64,000 nt of DNA from Pseudobdellovibrio exovorus JSS (GTDB lineage: Bacteria > Bdellovibrionota > Bdellovibrionia > Bdellovibrionales > Bdellovibrionaceae). Position numbers and translations under genes: made by a program. The notes beneath the pieces are model-generated. The model was not told the DNA's origin. It ran no database searches and was given only the letters and a program-made list of their open reading frames with translations. Where the stretch lies: contig NC_020813.1 of the NCBI RefSeq assembly GCF_000348725.1, positions 1 through 64,000 of the forward strand, written 5' to 3'. Shown here one piece after another: positions 32,419 through 40,913 of the stretch. The first letter of the stretch is position 1; each line of letters begins with the position of its first letter.

Positions 32419-34059
32419 ATGAGATTATTTTTTCTAACCACCCTTTTCTGCCTTTCGGCGTTTGCGCGCCTAACCGATAACCAAGTTGAAATTAAAGTAG
32501 AGCCAACTCCAACTCAAAAGCAGCTTCAACTGATTCCGAAAAAGGGATTCCATTTGAATGCAGAAGCACCCGCTTCGGCCACCTTTGATCAAAGTAAGTC
32601 ATCGTCAAAACCGGAATCAAAAACGGAACAGCTATTTACCTTTGCCATTCCTAATAAAGCCGCCACGGCAAATTTGAGTTACTACGTCTGTGACGATAAG
32701 AAAACTGTTTGCGAGCGCCACCAGCACAGTGTGAATTTAAAAACGGGCTCTGTAAAAGTAGAAGCAAAAGCCAAAGAAGAAAATAAAGCGATTTACAATC
32801 GTGCCCAAGATGTTCAATTGACCAGTAAAAATGGTAAACCTACGCTATTGGTATTTTCGGCTCCATGGTGTCCAGCCTGTTTGCGTATGCAGACAGAAAA
32901 CTTCAATCAGTTAGCTGTAAAAAACGAGCTGAAAAAAGTGAACTTTGCCAAATTGAATGTGGATATCACCGACAATGCCGAGTTATCAGAAAAGTTTGGT
33001 GTTCGCGCTATTCCCACAATGGTTTTATTAGATAAAGATGGAAATGAAACCTATCGTTGGTTGGATTTTCAGGCTCCCAAAAGCTTTGCTGCCGAACTGA
33101 AGCGCGAGGCCGCCCAAGCCCATCTATTTTTGGAAACTAAGAAAAAAGCAGAAATGGCTGACGCAAAAGCCGCTAGAGTTTTAGGGCTTCGTGCTTTTAA
33201 CGCCTTTGAGTTTGAAGAGGCGCTTAAGTGGTTTTCATTTACAAAAAGTGCAGAGGACTTGAAATACAAATTGGCCTCGGAAGTTAAAGTCGCACAAGAG
33301 AAATACTCAAAAGATATTGAAAAAGAAAAAAACAATTATCTGCAAACACTAGAAAAATCAATCGTGTTGACCACAGCGGAATTAGACAAGATAGATTGGT
33401 CTATTAGCTACTTGGAAGCGAAAAAAGAATTAAAGCTCATCAACGACGAATCAAAAACAAAAGCACAGGAAGTTCTTCAACAAATAGATCAGTTGATTGC
33501 TAAGCCACAGGCGGCGCAAAAAGCATTTAAGAATGCCACCTATGGAAATTATGATGGCTTTGAAAAAGAAGAGCTGCTGTATATGAAAGATCGTATTTAC
33601 AATGTGCTCGAGCTAAAAGAAGAAAAAGATAAAAATCGCCAAGCGCTATCAAAATCAATCGCCGCGAAAAAACTAAGCGTAAAGCGCCCAGGCGAGATGT
33701 TAATGGGAATTGTGTACACGCGCATGGCAGAAGATAATGCAAAAGCAGAAGCCATGTATGAAAGCCTTATCAAGGAATACCCACACAGTTACGTCTATTA
33801 TGAAAAGTACGCGCGGTTTCTTTTAAGAAATAAGAACACGGAAAAAGCATTGGCGCAGACGAATGAAGCCTTGAAGTATCCAGAAGGAAACTTACCGCAG
33901 CTCAGTCTGCTAAAGGCCAATGTCTTAAAAGAGCTGAACAAAAAAGACGAAGCATTAAGCCTAATCGACCAAATTCTGAAAAGTGACTATGTCCAGCATA
34001 AGAAGTACGCCGTGACGGTAAAACGGCTGAATGATCTAAAACAAGAGCTTAAAAACTAG
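32419..34059 (+). CDS. Exported thioredoxin-fold protein with TPR-like C-terminus
   Basis: The 546-residue protein has a signal peptide (cleavage after AFA), an N-terminal beta domain like the one before DsbD-type thioredoxins (CDDKKTVCERH), then a thioredoxin domain with active site SAPWCPACLRMQ and cis-proline AIPTMVLL, and about 300 residues of helical TPR-like repeats. It is probably a periplasmic disulfide reductase or isomerase with a protein-binding tail. The WCPAC dithiol is unusual beside WCGPC. The stop TAG begins a dispersed repeat. Confidence 0.82.
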   Translation: MRLFFLTTLFCLSAFARLTDNQVEIKVEPTPTQKQLQLIPKKGFHLNAEAPASATFDQSKSSSKPESKTEQLFTFAIPNKAATANLSYYVCDDKKTVCERHQHSVNLKTGSVKVEAKAKEENKAIYNRAQDVQLTSKNGKPTLLVFSAPWCPACLRMQTENFNQLAVKNELKKVNFAKLNVDITDNAELSEKFGVRAIPTMVLLDKDGNETYRWLDFQAPKSFAAELKREAAQAHLFLETKKKAEMADAKAARVLGLRAFNAFEFEEALKWFSFTKSAEDLKYKLASEVKVAQEKYSKDIEKEKNNYLQTLEKSIVLTTAELDKIDWSISYLEAKKELKLINDESKTKAQEVLQQIDQLIAKPQAAQKAFKNATYGNYDGFEKEELLYMKDRIYNVLELKEEKDKNRQALSKSIAAKKLSVKRPGEMLMGIVYTRMAEDNAKAEAMYESLIKEYPHSYVYYEKYARFLLRNKNTEKALAQTNEALKYPEGNLPQLSLLKANVLKELNKKDEALSLIDQILKSDYVQHKKYAVTVKRLNDLKQELKN

Positions 34060-34111
34060 GTGCCAGGCCGTGTTTACGGACACGCTGCGTCCGTAAACAC
34101 GGCCTGGCACC
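34057..34111. repeat. Stop-codon-anchored repeat forming a 23-bp perfect palindromic hairpin
   Basis: TAGGTGCCAGGCC begins on the stop codon of the thioredoxin/TPR gene. Two inverted copies of the unit (34059-34081 and 34089-34111) pair perfectly over 23 bp around ACGCTGC. No T run follows, so it is not a standard intrinsic terminator, although such a stem could stall RNA polymerase or protect a 3' end. Confidence 0.92.
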
Positions 34112-34114
34112 AAC

Positions 34115-34130
34115 TCGAACGAAGCCGAAC
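34115..34130 (+). promoter_or_regulatory. CGAAC direct repeat upstream of the TIGR02147 gene
   Basis: TCGAAC (34115-34120) and CCGAAC (34125-34130) repeat with 10-bp period, 84 bases before the start at 34214. Another CGAAC lies at 34152. The same arrangement precedes three further units in this locus. Confidence 0.65.
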
Positions 34131-34213
34131 ACAAATTATAGATTGGCTCGAACGTGGGTGATATTTTTGGTGACGGGTTCGTCCGTGTCAGACAGAAATC
34201 AGGGCAGACTATT

Positions 34214-35014
34214 ATGACAAATGTATTCTTATACGTAGATTTTCGCGAGTTTTTAAGGGACGAGCTGCAAAGACGTTCTTTGCGTAACTCAAAGTACTCT
34301 TTACGTGCCTTTGCTCGTGATATTGGAATGAGTATTTCCCGCCTATCTGAAACACTTTCGTCCACGGCGGGGATTTCGATGTCTACGGGGCAGCTTATTG
34401 CCCAACGTCTGAAGATGTCAGATGTGGAAAAAGAATACTTCTTAAATTTGATTATGGCTAAGCACGGGCGCACGCCAGAGGTCCGCAAGAAAGCTCAGCG
34501 CCGTATAAAGCAATACAAAGCCCGACGTATTTTTATTCAACTACGCGAAAACCATAAGGAATTACTTTCGAAGTGGTATTATTTGCCGCTGATTGAGTTA
34601 TTGGGAATGCGGTGCGAACTCAGCTCAGCTGAGATATCTAAAATTCTGGATATTTCCCAAGAAGAGGTTGTCGCGGCGTCGCTGTTCTTGGCTGAAAAAG
34701 GCCAGATCGTACGTAATGAAAATGGAGTTTGGCGTAAGGCGAATATCTTTCAAAAAATTGAAAGCTCTACCCCTGCCACAGCGATTCGTCAGTTTCATCG
34801 TGACGTTCTAAAAAGGGCCGCAGCCGCCATAGAGGCGCAACCTATTGAAAAGAGGAAGTATTTATCCAGCTACTTTACGATCAGAAAAGAAAACATCGCG
34901 GAAGCAAGGCAGGATATAGAGCGTTTTAATCAGTGGTTTTTGAAGAAATATGTCACTGAAAAAAATGCAGACTCAGTCTATGTTTTTGCTATACAACTGT
35001 TTGGCTTAGAGTAA
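34214..35014 (+). CDS. TIGR02147 (DUF4423-like) family probable transcriptional regulator
   Basis: A 266-residue protein that begins MTNVFLYVDFREFLRDEL, the hallmark start of TIGR02147 proteins (YxDYRxFLxD), followed by YSLRAFARDIGMSISRLSETL as an HTH-like unit, an ISMSTGQLIAQRLKMSDVEKEYF segment and a C-terminal winged-helix-like half (SSAEISKILDISQEEV). The family is rich in Bdellovibrio and Fibrobacter; its function is not established. ATG 34214 has AGGGCAG before it. The next gene follows after 9 bases. Confidence 0.78.
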   Translation: MTNVFLYVDFREFLRDELQRRSLRNSKYSLRAFARDIGMSISRLSETLSSTAGISMSTGQLIAQRLKMSDVEKEYFLNLIMAKHGRTPEVRKKAQRRIKQYKARRIFIQLRENHKELLSKWYYLPLIELLGMRCELSSAEISKILDISQEEVVAASLFLAEKGQIVRNENGVWRKANIFQKIESSTPATAIRQFHRDVLKRAAAAIEAQPIEKRKYLSSYFTIRKENIAEARQDIERFNQWFLKKYVTEKNADSVYVFAIQLFGLE

Positions 35015-35023
35015 TTTTGTGGT

Positions 35024-35749
35024 ATGTCTGGGGTCAGAGTGAAGATTTTAATTTTGAGCCTTTTATCTGTATTTAGTATGTCAGTTGCTGCTCGTGGAAA
35101 CAGTGGCGGCAGCGGAGCGACCACTGTCGGTGACGGCGGACATGTCGTTGTTTGTTATGACAACAGCCAATCTAAAAAAGAAGTTCAATTATTAGATCTT
35201 TTTGAAATGGAAGCTTTGGGCTACCCGACAACATTTGCATTGGGGAACGCACAGGTTCCACTGGCGAATAAGGTGTGGATGGGAATGACTCGTCTTCAAA
35301 GTCACTTGGGCTTAAGCAATGCCGAGGTAGACGAAATGGTCTACGCGGCCGATCGGTTTATGCGGTTTCCTTACGATCCATGGGAAACAGGGATGAGATC
35401 TTTTTTCGGTTATTTTCTACAGGCAAAGCCAGTTGAAGTTAGAAGAAGCGTCTTTGACGAAATGGAGCGTCGAGGTTGCCGGCTTGAAGTGGCCGTGATC
35501 CGTCCTGACTTAGATGCCGAGCGTGCTAGTACCGAGAACTATAAATCTATATGTAGTCGTAGCTTCGCAGGCTTTCACTATTGTTTTTTAATGAATACAG
35601 ATCTTATCCGAAAGATGGATAAGGACCAAAAAGCCTGTTTGATCATCCATGAAGTCCTAAGATTCTTACCTAAGGAAAAAAAGATTCAGAGTGAGCGAGC
35701 TTTACGACGCCACACGTATTACGCCTGCACGGGCCAATTGGCTGTATAA
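35024..35749 (+). CDS. Secreted GATTVGDGGH-family protein, copy 1
   Basis: A 241-residue exported protein with a signal peptide (cleavage near VAA-RG) and then SGATTVGDGGHVVVCYD. It is paralogous to the protein at 36340: shared features are LLDLFEMEALG, FPYDPWE, a C-terminal cysteine pair and KACLIIHEVLRFLPKEKK. The HExxR stretch resembles a degenerate zincin motif, but the third ligand is missing, so protease activity is doubtful. It probably shares a transcript with the TIGR02147 gene. Confidence 0.75.
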   Translation: MSGVRVKILILSLLSVFSMSVAARGNSGGSGATTVGDGGHVVVCYDNSQSKKEVQLLDLFEMEALGYPTTFALGNAQVPLANKVWMGMTRLQSHLGLSNAEVDEMVYAADRFMRFPYDPWETGMRSFFGYFLQAKPVEVRRSVFDEMERRGCRLEVAVIRPDLDAERASTENYKSICSRSFAGFHYCFLMNTDLIRKMDKDQKACLIIHEVLRFLPKEKKIQSERALRRHTYYACTGQLAV

Positions 35750-35755
35750 TTTAAG

Positions 35756-35771
35756 CGGAACACCTCCGAAC
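35756..35771 (+). promoter_or_regulatory. CGAAC direct repeat upstream of the DUF2059-like gene
   Basis: CGGAAC (35756-35761) and CCGAAC (35766-35771) repeat with 10-bp period, 101 bases before the next gene start. Confidence 0.65.
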
Positions 35772-35871
35772 ACTTTCTACAGACACATTCTTTGAACTGA
35801 CAATCAACATGGTAGGATATTTTTCTTAAAGGCATGTGAAAAGCTGCGCGTAAAAGAAAAAGAGGTCCTAC

Positions 35872-36324
35872 ATGATAAACAGACGAAGTCCATTTTTCAT
35901 CTCGGCAATTATTTTTATGCTATTTATTAGCACGAATAGCTTCGCAATTGAAACTAGGGTCGCTAGTGAAAAAGAAAAATTAGCGAAGGAATATCTGAAT
36001 ATCATGGGATTTGAAAACGAATCGCGAGAATCTTATGAGTCGCTACAGATGCGCATAACGAAAAGCAATCCGGCGTCAGGTGAAAAAATGAAGGCACCCG
36101 AGTTGACGGCCCGATACATTCAACAACTAGATCAAGCTTTGGTAAAAACAGTTACAGATGTCTTTTCTGAAGACGAGTTAAGGAAAACAGTGGCCCTTTT
36201 AAAAACCTCTTATGGAAAAACATTTGCAGAAGGTCATCGTAAATTCATGAAGAAATACATTGAAAATGTGAATGTCGTTATGGGCGAAATTTATAAAAAA
36301 GGTTTGGCTGGTAATCACGAATAG
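35872..36324 (+). CDS. Small exported DUF2059-like protein
   Basis: The 150-residue protein has a signal peptide (cleavage after SFA) and a helical mature part with LAKEYLNIMGF and VFSEDELRKTVALLKTSYGKTF, reminiscent of the DUF2059 family of secreted helical proteins. The next gene begins 16 bases later, so both are one unit. A role inside this locus is unknown. Confidence 0.68.
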   Translation: MINRRSPFFISAIIFMLFISTNSFAIETRVASEKEKLAKEYLNIMGFENESRESYESLQMRITKSNPASGEKMKAPELTARYIQQLDQALVKTVTDVFSEDELRKTVALLKTSYGKTFAEGHRKFMKKYIENVNVVMGEIYKKGLAGNHE

Positions 36325-36339
36325 TTTTAAGGGATTAAA

Positions 36340-37047
36340 ATGAAAAGTATAAATTTGATGTTGGCCTTGATGTTGGGCATGGCCTTTTCTTTTTCGGCTT
36401 GGGCCGAAGAAGGAGCCACCACCGTAGGTGATGGCGGACATGTTGTGATTTGTAAAACCCCAGAGGGATGGTCTGCTGGGCGATTATTAGATTTATTTGA
36501 AGCAGAGGTCTTGGGGAAATCTGTGATTTTTGATTTAGGAAGTGAAGAGCTGAGCATAATAGACAAAGTGAGCTTAGGACTGTCACGGGCGCAAGAAACC
36601 CTTAACTTGAAAAGCGGCGAAATAAACTCAATGCTGTCCGTAGCTGAAAGATTTTTAAAGTTTCCCTATGATCCGTGGAAAAGAGCTAAAACGGAAAATG
36701 GCGGCGCCGTTTATGCCATTAAAGCAAAAGATCCGTTAGTCAGTCGACAAGTCTATTACGAGCTAGAGCGCCGCAACTGTTACGTTGATACAGTTGTGAT
36801 TCATCCAGACTTCAGCGATAGAAGATCGCAACAAACTAAAACTTACGAGAATATCTGCCTGGCAAATGTAATTGGTCTTCGCCAATGTTTTTTAACAAAC
36901 ACACGACATTTAAGAACAATGAGCTCAGATGAAAAAGCCTGTTTAGTGATACATGAAACTTTGCGGTTTTTACCTCAGTCAAAGAGCTTTAAAAAAGATT
37001 CAGATTTACGTCGCATGACGTATCAAATTTGTACAGGTCAGATTTGA
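36340..37047 (+). CDS. Secreted GATTVGDGGH-family protein, copy 2
   Basis: The 235-residue protein has a signal peptide (cleavage after AWA) and is a paralogue of the protein at 35024: GATTVGDGGHVVICKTPEG, LLDLFEAEVLG, KFPYDPWKR and EKACLVIHETLRFLPQSK are shared, as are the cysteine positions. Overall similarity looks moderate. The GG-rich start followed by xVVxC is common among small secreted proteins of Bdellovibrio, as far as I know; the function is unknown. Confidence 0.75.
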   Translation: MKSINLMLALMLGMAFSFSAWAEEGATTVGDGGHVVICKTPEGWSAGRLLDLFEAEVLGKSVIFDLGSEELSIIDKVSLGLSRAQETLNLKSGEINSMLSVAERFLKFPYDPWKRAKTENGGAVYAIKAKDPLVSRQVYYELERRNCYVDTVVIHPDFSDRRSQQTKTYENICLANVIGLRQCFLTNTRHLRTMSSDEKACLVIHETLRFLPQSKSFKKDSDLRRMTYQICTGQI

Positions 37048-37062
37048 TCGAACATTCCGAAC
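37048..37062 (+). promoter_or_regulatory. CGAAC direct repeat upstream of PP-loop gene 1
   Basis: TCGAAC (37048-37053) and CCGAAC (37057-37062) repeat with 9-bp period, 70 bases before the start at 37132. Confidence 0.6.
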
Positions 37063-37100
37063 GGATAAAGGACTCGATTTAAAACAGAACAGAGGACCCC

Positions 37101-37145
37101 ATGATAGCATTTTTGCATCAGGGGGTTGTCTGTGTTTGTATCTGA
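37101..37145 (+). CDS. Possible 14-codon leader ORF overlapping PP-loop gene 1
   Basis: An ATG with a good AGAGGA site opens MIAFLHQGVVCVCI and ends at TGA 37143-37145, inside the start of the larger gene in another frame. The AGGGGG site of the larger gene lies within it. It could couple or modulate translation, or be chance. Confidence 0.3.
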   Translation: MIAFLHQGVVCVCI

Positions 37146-38265
37146 AGAACGTACGCTGAATGGCGAACGTATACATTATATTGAGGTGGCAGAGGCAAGA
37201 GGGCGTTTAAGCACGCCGTTACAGCATGCCGTTGAGGCCGCATTGAAAATTCAACAGCAAGCCGAAATAGCCCGATTGCCGATAAAGCTTTTTCTGAGCG
37301 GCGGAATTGATTCAGAAGCCATGGCCCGCGCTTTCTTAGCTGCCCGTGTTCCCTTTACTGCGGTGATCGCTCGTTACAATCAAGATATGAATTTCCATGA
37401 TTACGAAACGGCAATTCCCTTCTGCGAGCAATTCGGCATTAAGATCGAGTTTATCGACATTGATGTGTATCAGTTTTTAGAAAAAGAAGAGCATCTGGCC
37501 TATGGACATGAGCTGGGGTGCCGTTCACCGCAGCTTGCTGTGTATATGCATATATTAGATCAGGTGGACGGGTTTCCTGTTTTGGCGGGGAATCCGATTT
37601 TTCCGATTCTTAATGGCGGAGCAGAACAGATCAAACAGGGAATACAAACGGGCCGATTGCTACTTGAGCGTGTGATGGGTCTTTCAGATCAAACGCAAGC
37701 CTCTCTGCTGCGCTATTTTGAAAAACGTCAACGCCGAGGTGAGCCGTTCTTTTTTCAATCGTCTTCTGCGCTGATAATGTCATTCCTAAAACTACAGAGC
37801 ACCATTCAAGAGATTGTGCGCGAAGAAAAAACATACACCTATCAAATGAAGTGCCGCGCTTATCGTGATGGTGGTTTTGATGTAGAGCCACGAGCAGACA
37901 AATACACAGGTTTTGAAAAGTATCGTGAAGAGTACGACAAAAGATTAAATACACAGTATGGAAAAGGATTTGATAGAAAGTTCCGTGAACCGCTCGAAAA
38001 GATGAACCCACTTCTGACTGAAAAAACACAGCTCCCAGTTCCCAGCGAAGTCATAGAACTTATTTTTGCGGAAACCATCCGTATGACAAGACCAAATGAA
38101 CTCAACAGACGAAGGGCCTTGTTACAGATGATGATGATTTCTGTCGGTGTACTGTCGCCACTTCCCGCGTGGGCTCTGTCGTGTTGTTGTGATTATGCGA
38201 ATAACCTCGGCTGTATCATCACGAGTCCGGCTGGCTGTAAAGCCCATTTAGCTACATGTTATTAA
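37132..38265 (+). CDS. PP-loop ATPase (asparagine-synthetase-like) with C-terminal Tat-like signal and six-cysteine tail, copy 1
   Basis: The 377-residue protein has a PP-loop SGGIDS at 56-61, as in asparagine synthetase and other adenylating N-type ATP pyrophosphatases, without a glutaminase domain. Residues 75-310 include HELGCRSPQLAVYM and GFPVLAGNPIFPI. The C-terminus is unexpected: NRRRALLQ at 325-332, a hydrophobic run ending PAWA, then 29 residues with cysteines at 351, 352, 353, 361, 369 and 376. GTG 37132 follows AGGGGG; TTG 37126 is an alternative. The next gene is its paralogue. Confidence 0.8.
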   Translation: MFVSEERTLNGERIHYIEVAEARGRLSTPLQHAVEAALKIQQQAEIARLPIKLFLSGGIDSEAMARAFLAARVPFTAVIARYNQDMNFHDYETAIPFCEQFGIKIEFIDIDVYQFLEKEEHLAYGHELGCRSPQLAVYMHILDQVDGFPVLAGNPIFPILNGGAEQIKQGIQTGRLLLERVMGLSDQTQASLLRYFEKRQRRGEPFFFQSSSALIMSFLKLQSTIQEIVREEKTYTYQMKCRAYRDGGFDVEPRADKYTGFEKYREEYDKRLNTQYGKGFDRKFREPLEKMNPLLTEKTQLPVPSEVIELIFAETIRMTRPNELNRRRALLQMMMISVGVLSPLPAWALSCCCDYANNLGCIITSPAGCKAHLATCY

Positions 38266-38323
38266 CGGCTCAAAATTAAACGCGAAAGGAAAACATAAAG
38301 ATAGCTGAATTTTAATCAAAAAC

Positions 38324-38339
38324 CCGAACGCGACCGAAC
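38324..38339 (+). promoter_or_regulatory. CCGAAC direct repeat upstream of PP-loop gene 2
   Basis: CCGAAC at 38324-38329 and 38334-38339 repeat perfectly with 10-bp period, 88 bases before the start at 38427. Confidence 0.68.
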
Positions 38340-38426: not shown

Positions 38427-39581
38427 ATGGTTTCCTTTCAAGCAAAAACTGCGAAAGAATCTTTATTATCTGAAAGCCGGATATTAAACGGAGAAAAAAT
38501 TCATTCGATTGAAGTTGCAAAAGTTTTTGCAGATCTAAGCTCACCCATAGAGCACGCGATGACCAAGGCGAAAGAAATTGCTCGAACAGCATGGGCTAAT
38601 AATTTAGAAATTAAACTATTCCTCAGTGGTGGTATTGATTCCGAGGCGATGGCGCGAGCTTTTTTAGCAGCAGGTATTCCTTTTGTCGCGGTGATTGGTC
38701 GCTACAACCAGAATATGAATGAACATGACTACGTCACGGCGATATCGTTCTGCGATCAATTCCATATTCCTATGCAGTTTCTAGATGTGGATGTGTATCA
38801 GTTTCTAGAAGATGAGGGTCATTTGGCCTATGGACACGAACTAGGATGTCGTTCACCCCAGCTTGCTGTGTACATGTATATGTTAGATCAAATCGAAGGT
38901 TTTCCGGTCTTAGCGGGCAATCCTATATTTCCTATTTTGAAAAATTCGGGAAGTGAGCTTAGAAAAGAACTCTCTACTGGAAGCTTTGAAATGGAGCGTG
39001 TTGTGGGCCTTTCAGATCAGACACAGGCTGTGCTTTTTCGTTATTTTGAAAAACGTCAACGTCTAGGTGTTCCTTTTTTCTTTCAATCCTGTGCTGAGTT
39101 GATGATGTCGTTTTTAAATTTAGAAAGTACAATCGAAGCTATGACTAGTGGTCGAAAGAATTATAGCTATGAAATGAAGTGTCGCGCTTATCGTGATGGT
39201 GGTTTTGATGTAGAGCCACGAGCAGACAAATACACAGGCTTTGAAAAGTATCGTGAAGAGTACGATAAAAGATTAAACACACAGTATGGAAAAGGATTTG
39301 ATCAAAAATTTCGTCAGCCATTAGAAATGTTAAATCCACTTCTGGCTGAAAAGATATATCTACCTTTACCTGCTCAGGTGACAGAAAAACTTTTTAGAAA
39401 ACTTTCATCTTTATTTAAATCGGATGCGAACATGAGCCGTCGAGGAATCTTGGCTGGAGTGGCCGCCGCTGCTTTTGGATTATTAATCCCGCTTCCGGCA
39501 AATGCATTGATGTGGTGTTGCTGTTCGGATGGGAACTGTTTTTCAACAACGCCGAAAATGTGCAAACAAATGTGCCTTTAA
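38427..39581 (+). CDS. PP-loop ATPase (asparagine-synthetase-like) with C-terminal Tat-like signal and six-cysteine tail, copy 2
   Basis: A 384-residue paralogue of the preceding gene. PP-loop SGGIDS is at 67-72 and HELGCRSPQLAVYM and GNPIFPI are kept. The C-terminus holds a clear twin-arginine signal, SRRGILAG at 337-344, hydrophobic run, PANA cleavage-type site, then 24 residues with cysteines at 364, 365, 366, 371, 379 and 383. TTGGAG precedes ATG 38427; ATG 38385 would add 14 residues. A 120-bp block encoding YRDGGFDVEPRADKY is nearly identical in DNA between the two copies. Confidence 0.8.
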   Translation: MVSFQAKTAKESLLSESRILNGEKIHSIEVAKVFADLSSPIEHAMTKAKEIARTAWANNLEIKLFLSGGIDSEAMARAFLAAGIPFVAVIGRYNQNMNEHDYVTAISFCDQFHIPMQFLDVDVYQFLEDEGHLAYGHELGCRSPQLAVYMYMLDQIEGFPVLAGNPIFPILKNSGSELRKELSTGSFEMERVVGLSDQTQAVLFRYFEKRQRLGVPFFFQSCAELMMSFLNLESTIEAMTSGRKNYSYEMKCRAYRDGGFDVEPRADKYTGFEKYREEYDKRLNTQYGKGFDQKFRQPLEMLNPLLAEKIYLPLPAQVTEKLFRKLSSLFKSDANMSRRGILAGVAAAAFGLLIPLPANALMWCCCSDGNCFSTTPKMCKQMCL

Positions 39582-40163: not shown

Positions 40164-40913
40164 GTGAGCAAAAAAGAAAAGCCCGCGCGGTACAAAAACG
40201 AAAAGTTTCTGAAAGCTTTGGGGCGTCACTGTCAGCAACTCAGAATCAAAAAAGGCTACACGATAGATCGTCTGTATCGTGAAGGCGATCAGTTGAGTAC
40301 CTCAGCGATTCATCGTTTAGAAAATGGTGCCGCAGATACTCAGATCAGCGTCTTTTATCGTTACGCTCAAGTTCTGGGTTTAGAGTTACAGGATTTATTC
40401 AAGTTTGAAGTTCCTACAGAAAAATCAAAAAAGATTTTACCATTTGATGAGGACAATCCAGAAAGACCGAAATCTTGTGTTCCCTACTATGACATTCATG
40501 TGGCTGCTGGAGCGTTCGATCAGCAAAAGCTAAACCAGCAAGATCCAAGTGGTTGGGTTAAAATTGAAAACCTGCGCAATCAAACAGAATATTTTGCAAC
40601 TCATGTCAAAGGCCGCTCGATGGAGCCAGCGATTCCGTCAGGTTCTTTATGTCTTTTTCGCTTTTATCAAGGTGGAACTCGTCAGAATAAAATCTTCTTA
40701 GTGAAATCCCGCGGTGTTTTAGATCCAGAAACAAATGAATCTTTCGTTGTTAAAAAATACAAACGCCTGAGCACAGTTGAAGATGATGAAAACAGATCTA
40801 AAGTGGTCGTACATCTTCTATCAGAAAATACGACCTACCCTCCGATCGTGTTGATGGCTTCAGATGAAACTCAAATTGAAGTGATGGCTGAGTTTATCGA
40901 AGTTCTCGAGTAA
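40164..40913 (+). CDS. HTH-XRE / S24 peptidase-type repressor
   Basis: The 249-residue protein has an N-terminal Cro/CI-type HTH (LRIKKGYTIDRLYREG, STSAIHRLENG) and a C-terminal LexA/CI-like S24 domain with the serine in HVKGRSMEPAIPSGSL and the lysine in SFVVKKYKRL. YDIHVAAGAF marks the region where LexA-type proteins have their cleavage Ala-Gly. It could respond to DNA damage or be non-cleaving. The start is GTG. No phage genes surround it, so it is probably a chromosomal regulator, perhaps of the adjacent pilin-like cluster. Confidence 0.82.
   Translation: MSKKEKPARYKNEKFLKALGRHCQQLRIKKGYTIDRLYREGDQLSTSAIHRLENGAADTQISVFYRYAQVLGLELQDLFKFEVPTEKSKKILPFDEDNPERPKSCVPYYDIHVAAGAFDQQKLNQQDPSGWVKIENLRNQTEYFATHVKGRSMEPAIPSGSLCLFRFYQGGTRQNKIFLVKSRGVLDPETNESFVVKKYKRLSTVEDDENRSKVVVHLLSENTTYPPIVLMASDETQIEVMAEFIEVLE

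What the first reader, a model, noticed from the sequence alone, without database searches (positions are those of the whole stretch)
34115..38339. CCGAAC direct repeats with one helical turn spacing before four transcription units
Seen: (C/T)CGAAC or CGGAAC pairs with 10-bp period occur at 34115, 35756, 38324 (9-bp at 37048), each 70-101 bases before the next start codon, and I saw no such pair elsewhere in the window. They precede the TIGR02147 gene, the DUF2059-like/GATTVGDGGH unit and both PP-loop genes. Inference: a common activator or repressor, most simply the TIGR02147 protein, controls all four units, making this 5-kb block a regulon and one functional system.
Basis: partly seen in the sequence, partly recalled or inferred. 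Interest (0 to 1): 0.82.

Follow-up and report, generated by a model that had tools for sequence, protein, structure and literature searches.

The report
Operator and regulon of TIGR02147 regulators
The paired CCGAAC boxes in front of four gene units look like the landing sites of the DNA-binding protein made by the first of those genes, and similar boxes before relatives of that gene across a phylum of predatory-type bacteria reveal, for the first time as far as I could find, the binding code of this large unstudied regulator family.

Summary
Tandem (Y)(C/G)GAAC pairs lie at 34115, 35756, 37048 and 38324, all on the + strand, upstream of four co-oriented units. The whole 2.66-Mb genome holds only five other pairs of this form and three other CGAACN5CGAAC matches; all eight lie inside genes. 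Chance of four within 4.3 kb is about 1e-8.

In 200 bp upstream of 109 TIGR02147 genes, an unbiased screen of 2,312 4-mer/spacing combinations ranks GAAC at exactly 10 bp first (15 loci, 0.97 expected). The screen of inverted pairs ranks AACA-N3-TGTT first (26 vs 0.26), the core of a GAACA-N3-TGTTC palindrome. The palindrome replicated in 43 further genes: 12/43 vs 3/247 controls. The base 5' of GAAC covaries with one recognition-helix residue, also after allowing for the tree (P about 2e-4). The operator sits 16 bp upstream of a sigma70-type -35 box, an activator-like position.

So this is a local, autoregulated TIGR02147 regulon; direct binding is strongly inferred, activation likely, both untested. 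"One functional system" is plausible, not shown. I found no published TIGR02147 operator.

The parts
34115..34130 (+). operator 1, TCGAAC-N4-CCGAAC (10-bp period), 84-99 bp before the TIGR02147 gene
34147..34154 (+). single extra half-site CTCGAACG after operator 1
34214..35014 (+). TIGR02147/DUF4423 regulator: XRE-type HTH (recognition helix 41-48, specificity residue R47) plus winged-helix C-terminal domain
   Evidence: TIGR02147 9e-31, DUF4423 3e-24; AlphaFold2 model pLDDT 88.7
35024..35749 (+). exported protein with ATTVGDGGHVVVC motif, 9 bp after the regulator (same operon)
   Evidence: 112 of 148 TIGR02147 genes are followed by an ORF with an export-signal-like start, 72 of 148 with a 4-nt overlap
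35756..35771 (+). operator 2, CGGAAC-N4-CCGAAC
36340..37047 (+). second exported ATTVGDGGHVVIC protein, 44% identical to the first; same operon as 35872-36324
37048..37062 (+). operator 3, TCGAAC-N3-CCGAAC (9-bp period)
37126..38265 (+). PP-loop ATPase (SGGIDSE) with C-terminal RR/hydrophobic segment and Cys-rich tail
38324..38339 (+). operator 4, CCGAAC-N4-CCGAAC
38430..39581 (+). second PP-loop ATPase, 63% identical to the first, with its own RR/Cys-rich tail (ORF open from 38385)

Best explanation
The four paired boxes are operators of the TIGR02147 protein encoded at 34214-35014. The protein is predicted to have an XRE-type HTH joined to a winged helix. It probably binds GAAC half-sites, as tandem half-sites one helical turn apart here and, in many relatives, as a GAACA-N3-TGTTC palindrome with an extra tandem half-site. 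In relatives with a palindrome the operator centre lies about 51 bp upstream of the transcription start, 16 bp before the -35 box. I infer that in the window it likewise lies just upstream of weak -35 elements, where the bound protein would recruit RNA polymerase. It would thus activate its own operon (TF + exported protein) and three neighbouring units (exported-protein pair, PP-loop 1, PP-loop 2). Shown: the sites, their exclusivity in the genome, the family-wide operator, its fixed promoter geometry and the residue-base covariation. Inferred: direct binding by this protein, activation rather than repression, and the shared purpose of the four units.
For: Sites real and, of all genome matches examined, the only intergenic ones. 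Upstream of 109 TIGR02147 genes, 8-mer direct repeats at 10 bp occur in 11 loci against 0-0.7 expected, and no other spacing from 6 to 40 bp stands out. Unbiased 4-mer screens: GAAC at 10 bp P 2e-13 (best of 2312); inverted AACA-N3-TGTT P 2e-42 and GAAC-N5-GTTC P 2e-26. Second set of 43 genes: palindrome 12/43 vs 3/247 (P 9e-9), tandem 3/43 vs 2/247 (P 0.025). The base 5' of GAAC covaries with the recognition-helix residue (window R47): best of 71 columns; Arg/Lys with purine 18/21, with pyrimidine 2/15; Fisher 2e-5; tree-aware simulation P about 2e-4. R47 lies in predicted helix 41-48. -35 box at +16/+17 from the palindrome centre in 25 of 46 loci, reached in 0 of 500 shuffles. Other loci (L203, L193, L214, L221) carry a second operator near the TIGR02147 gene, mostly before a gene for an exported protein. 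The four window promoters are not recent copies of one another outside the boxes.
Against: Canonical operators are found upstream of only 55 of 152 TIGR02147 genes, so many members use other sequences or lack autoregulation. The window protein is one of two exceptions to the residue-base rule (Arg with C), the other being L068. The window sites lack the inverted third half-site, and one has a 9-bp period. Promoter elements after the window sites are weak, most of all before the TIGR02147 gene itself. Paralogous TIGR02147 genes elsewhere in the same genome (e.g. 206566, 1212703, 1583016) could in principle bind the sites. No binding or expression data.
Confidence: 0.82

Rival explanations
1. 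The same operators, but TIGR02147 acts as a repressor of its own and the neighbouring units.
For: Autorepression is common among XRE-type regulators (general knowledge). The effector is unknown. The single half-site at 34147-34154 falls between operator 1 and the TF start codon.
Against: In relatives the palindrome lies upstream of the -35 box at one fixed helical phase (+16/+17 in 25 of 46 loci), as expected for contact with RNA polymerase; a simple roadblock repressor needs neither that position nor the phase.
Confidence: 0.25
2. The boxes belong to another regulator with a GAAC half-site, such as LexA (GAAC-N4-GTTC in Gram-positives, GTTC-N7-GTTC in alphaproteobacteria) or the nearby S24-peptidase XRE protein at 40164-40913.
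For: The half-site resembles these LexA boxes (PMC3323433, PMC8565304), and an XRE + S24 gene follows PP-loop 2.
Against: This genome's lexA (439555) has TTACACTGTAA upstream, the Bdellovibrio-type TTAC-N3-GTAA box, and no GAAC box. The spacings differ (10 bp tandem, N5 palindrome), and GAAC at 11 bp occurs in none of the 109 TIGR02147 upstream regions. The boxes track TIGR02147 genes across the phylum. No such pair lies before the S24 gene.
Confidence: 0.04
3. The repeats are by-products of tandem duplication of one promoter with no present regulatory role.
For: PP1/PP2 and the two VGDGGH proteins are paralogous pairs.
Against: Promoter sequence outside the boxes is not clearly alike in any of the six pairs (largest difference from shuffled about 1.8 sd). 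The boxes differ in spacing and spacer. The same boxes recur before unrelated promoters in other families.
Confidence: 0.03
4. Chance: a motif picked out by eye.
For: CGAAC is not rare (60 + and 55 - copies in the window), and pairs genome-wide are no more common than the reversed control.
Against: Four of nine genome pairs fall in 4.3 kb, all intergenic and co-oriented (P about 1e-8), and the same core and period came first in an unbiased screen of relatives.
Confidence: 0.01

Closest known systems
TIGR02147 (NCBIfam) / DUF4423 (PF14394) family
   Same: Regulator at 34214-35014 matches both above their curated cut-offs.
   Different: No operator, regulon or function has been reported that I could find: TIGR02147 occurs in no paper of the library, DUF4423 in one proteomics table (Bd3700; PMC12546842).
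XRE/Cro-CI-type HTH regulators with an adjoining effector domain
   Same: N-terminal five-helix XRE-like HTH, palindromic operator, likely autoregulation (weak sequence match to HigA).
   Different: The C-terminal half is a MarR/ArsR-like winged helix; no solved full-length relative (no Foldseek match at E<=0.001); tandem half-sites at 10 bp beside the palindrome; activator-like placement.
LexA boxes (GAAC-N4-GTTC; GTTC-N7-GTTC)
   Same: GAAC half-site, palindrome or direct repeat.
   Different: Spacing is N5 (palindrome) or 10 bp (tandem). This genome's own lexA carries a TTAC-N3-GTAA box.
Local self-controlled regulons (a regulator plus adjacent operons with the same operator)
   Same: Regulator autoregulates and controls neighbours that share its operator.
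   Different: Targets are exported proteins with a G(N/D)GG-type motif and PP-loop enzymes with Cys-rich exported tails, an unstudied combination.

Membership tests
TIGR02147 / DUF4423 regulators | match to TIGR02147 and PF14394 above curated cut-off | tested here: met
   107.3 bits vs 50; 86.3 vs 30
TIGR02147 / DUF4423 regulators | conserved YSLRAFARDL-x-SRLSE HTH signature | tested here: met
   alignments A1 and A2
TIGR02147 operator (defined here) | GAAC half-sites in 10-bp tandem and/or GAACA-N3-TGTTC palindrome within 200 bp upstream | tested here: met
   three window sites have the 10-bp tandem form, one the 9-bp form; none is a full palindrome
TIGR02147 operator (defined here) | base 5' of GAAC is purine when the helix residue is Arg/Lys | tested here: not met
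   window protein has R47 but C 5' of GAAC in seven of its eight half-sites; L068 is the other exception
TIGR02147 operator (defined here) | direct binding by the TIGR02147 protein | not testable with these tools
   needs EMSA or DAP-seq
LexA/SOS box | Bdellovibrio-type TTAC-N3-GTAA | tested here: not met
   the four sites differ from it; lexA of this genome carries TTACACTGTAA
PP-loop ATPases (QueC, NAD synthase, Asn synthase superfamily) | SGGxDS motif | tested here: met
   SGGIDSE in both proteins, SGGxDS in most homologues; family matches below curated cut-offs
DUF2059 | Pfam match of the 35872-36324 protein | tested here: not met
   no DUF2059 match at E<=0.1

The most novel reading that the evidence does not exclude
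TIGR02147 regulators form a large set of mutually insulated self-activating switches in Bdellovibrionota: each paralogue reads its own variant of the GAACA-N3-TGTTC/tandem operator through one helix residue, and each drives itself plus exported Gly-rich proteins. In the window such a switch would additionally control PP-loop enzymes whose Cys-rich, Tat-like tails are exported (RiPP-like) products.
Probability: 0.2. Interest if true: 0.85.

Novelty: new variant of a known kind. Interest (0 to 1): 0.66.

Why it matters
TIGR02147 is among the commoner uncharacterised regulator families of Bdellovibrio-type bacteria: 167 of 196 related genomes have a match, many of them ten or more. It has no published function that I could find. 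An operator, a helix residue linked to one operator base and a promoter geometry turn it from an annotation into something that can be tested and used to predict regulons genome by genome, and they point to exported proteins as its usual targets.

Tried and rejected
Genome-wide over-representation of CGAACN5CGAAC: not seen (5 hits vs 8 in the reversed control); the signal is local. Orthologous blocks in relatives: none found; the exported VGDGGH proteins have only short N-terminal matches elsewhere. CGAAC pairs near other PP-loop genes: none before them (the two matches in those loci, L014/L061 and L018, are well away from the gene). Defence system: PADLOC gives only weak QueC matches for the PP-loop proteins and a marginal PDC-M21A match for the regulator. 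DUF2059: no Pfam support. Foldseek gave only partial MarR-like matches, E>0.01.

Full report
CHECKING THE OBSERVATION. All four pairs are in the sequence at the stated places: 34115-34130 TCGAAC-GAAG-CCGAAC, 35756-35771 CGGAAC-ACCT-CCGAAC, 37048-37062 TCGAAC-ATT-CCGAAC, 38324-38339 CCGAAC-GCGA-CCGAAC. No further CGAAC pair with a period of 8-12 bp exists in the window on either strand. In the complete genome (2,657,893 bp) the pattern YSGAACN{3,4}YSGAAC has nine matches, four of which are these; the reversed control has fourteen. The other five, and the three further CGAACN5CGAAC matches, lie inside open reading frames. The motif is therefore not over-represented genome-wide, but its intergenic copies are confined to this 4.3-kb block; the Poisson probability of four there is 2e-9 to 1e-8.

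ANATOMY. The sites precede four co-oriented units. Unit 1: TIGR02147 regulator (34214-35014) and, 9 bp later, an exported ATTVGDGGHVVVC protein. Unit 2: a 150-aa exported protein (35872-36324) and a second VGDGGH protein (36340-37047). Unit 3: PP-loop protein 1 (37126-38265). Unit 4: PP-loop protein 2 (38430-39581). The regulator passes the curated cut-offs of TIGR02147 and DUF4423. AlphaFold2 (56-sequence alignment, pLDDT 88.7) gives an XRE-like five-helix HTH (recognition helix 41-48), a long helix and a winged-helix domain; profile and Foldseek matches are to HigA (HTH) and to MarR/ArsR/AdcR (winged helix), all weak.

THE FAMILY TEST. I collected TIGR02147 genes from relatives; 109 distinct proteins with their upstream DNA entered the test. 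The proteins are diverse: 80 clusters at 45% identity. Maximal direct repeats of 8 or more bp in the 200 bp upstream occur at a period of exactly 10 bp in 11 loci; controls from farther upstream and from the gene bodies predict 0 to 0.7, and no other period from 6 to 40 stands out. A screen of inverted repeats ranks AACA-N3-TGTT first (26 vs 0.26, P 2e-42) and GAAC-N5-GTTC second (20 vs 0.44). Typical full operators carry both elements: L082 ACCGAACAGTACCGAACACTTTGTTCGGT, L146 GCGAACACAAGCGAACACTTTGTTCGC, L096 TCGAACACCTTCGAACACTATGTTCGAA, L166 CAGAACAATGTAGAACACTTTGTTCTG. A second set of 43 further genes, not used to find the motif, replicates the palindrome (12/43 vs 3/247, P 9e-9) and, weakly, the tandem (3/43 vs 2/247, P 0.025). 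Altogether 55 of 152 genes carry a canonical operator (tandem 18, palindrome 45) against 7 tandem and 7 palindrome matches in 864 control windows.

WHO READS IT. The base immediately 5' of GAAC differs among loci but is usually the same on both arms. Among 71 alignment columns of the N-terminal region, the one that best predicts it is the residue SxS[X]LSE in the recognition helix (window R47): Arg/Lys goes with a purine in 18 of 21 and with a pyrimidine in 2 of 15 (Fisher 2e-5; P about 2e-4 in a simulation on the protein tree). This is what direct recognition by the TIGR02147 protein predicts. The window protein is one of the two exceptions (Arg with C), so other residues matter too.

HOW IT PROBABLY WORKS. 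Relative to the palindrome centre a -35 box starts at +16 or +17 in 25 of 46 loci (0 of 500 shuffles), with -10 elements 16-18 bp on. The -10 ends 6-8 bp before the start codon in many of these genes, so their mRNAs look leaderless. The operator centre then lies near -51, upstream of and in fixed phase with the core promoter, the place of an activator; sequence between these elements is otherwise unconserved, so the phase is selected rather than inherited. In the window the corresponding distance to the best promoter candidates is about -45 to -56 for three units with weak -35 elements; for the TF itself no good promoter is visible. Activation is my preferred reading (about 0.7 given binding), not a demonstrated one.

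REGULON. In L203, L193, L214 and L221 a second palindrome with a similar or identical half-site stands near the TIGR02147 gene, in three of the four directly before a gene whose product starts with an export-signal-like sequence; L200 carries a further tandem CGGAAC site after its TF operon. 112 of 148 TIGR02147 genes are followed by an ORF with an export-signal-like start, 72 of 148 with a 4-nt overlap, often with a G(N/D)GG motif after the signal (61 of 148). The window block fits this plan and adds two PP-loop enzymes.

RIVALS. LexA: this genome's lexA carries the TTAC-N3-GTAA box known for B. bacteriovorus. S24-XRE protein downstream: no such pair before it. Recent duplication of one promoter: flanks outside the boxes are not clearly alike. 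Chance: refuted.

LIMITS. Everything here is sequence and model evidence. No close strain of this species was available, so conservation of the four window sites themselves is untested. Relatives carry unnamed handles in the whole-genome set; the named loci are mostly metagenome-assembled Bdellovibrionota. Fibrobacter members of TIGR02147 were not reached. Literature search covered open-licence PMC papers only.

Noticed in passing
window 34059-34111: Perfect 23-bp inverted repeat (-50 kcal/mol, z -12) ending just before operator 1; its arm GGTGCCAGGCC[GCT]TGTTTACGG occurs 16 times on each strand of the genome with up to 3 mismatches and never in the reversed control: a REP/REPIN-like dispersed palindrome.
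   Followed up: partly
window 37126-38265 and 38430-39581; L051 6900-8207; L047 7309-7800; L055 6652-6999: A PP-loop (SGGxDSE) family, often multi-copy per genome in Bdellovibrionales, is fused to, or neighboured by, RR-signal (Tat-like) Cys-rich tails or peptides (e.g. ...ALSCCCDYANNLGCIITSPAGCKAHLATCY); looks like an enzyme with its own exported Cys-rich product, RiPP-like.
   Followed up: partly
window 37840-37990 vs 39168-39318: PP1 and PP2 share a near-identical DNA tract (140 of 151 bases; one 60-bp stretch 98%) inside genes otherwise 37-80% identical in 60-bp windows, suggesting gene conversion or strong constraint.
   Followed up: no
L082, L091, L146, L193, L203 and others, upstream of the TIGR02147 start codon: TIGR02147 genes with a palindromic operator often have the -10 element 6-8 bp before ATG, i.e. 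apparently leaderless mRNAs.
   Followed up: partly
L041 1399-1420 (G000:C1:1212703 paralogue): The closest paralogue of the window regulator (43% identity) in the same genome has its own 10-bp tandem repeat upstream, TGCTTCGGATTGCTTCGGA (TCCGAAGCAATCCGAAGCA on the other strand), a related but different half-site, and is also followed by a secreted VGDGG protein.
   Followed up: partly
L047 5854-6228: A truncated TIGR02147 (HTH half only, 124 aa) sits 2 bp before a PP-loop gene elsewhere in the same genome, a second link between the two families.
   Followed up: no
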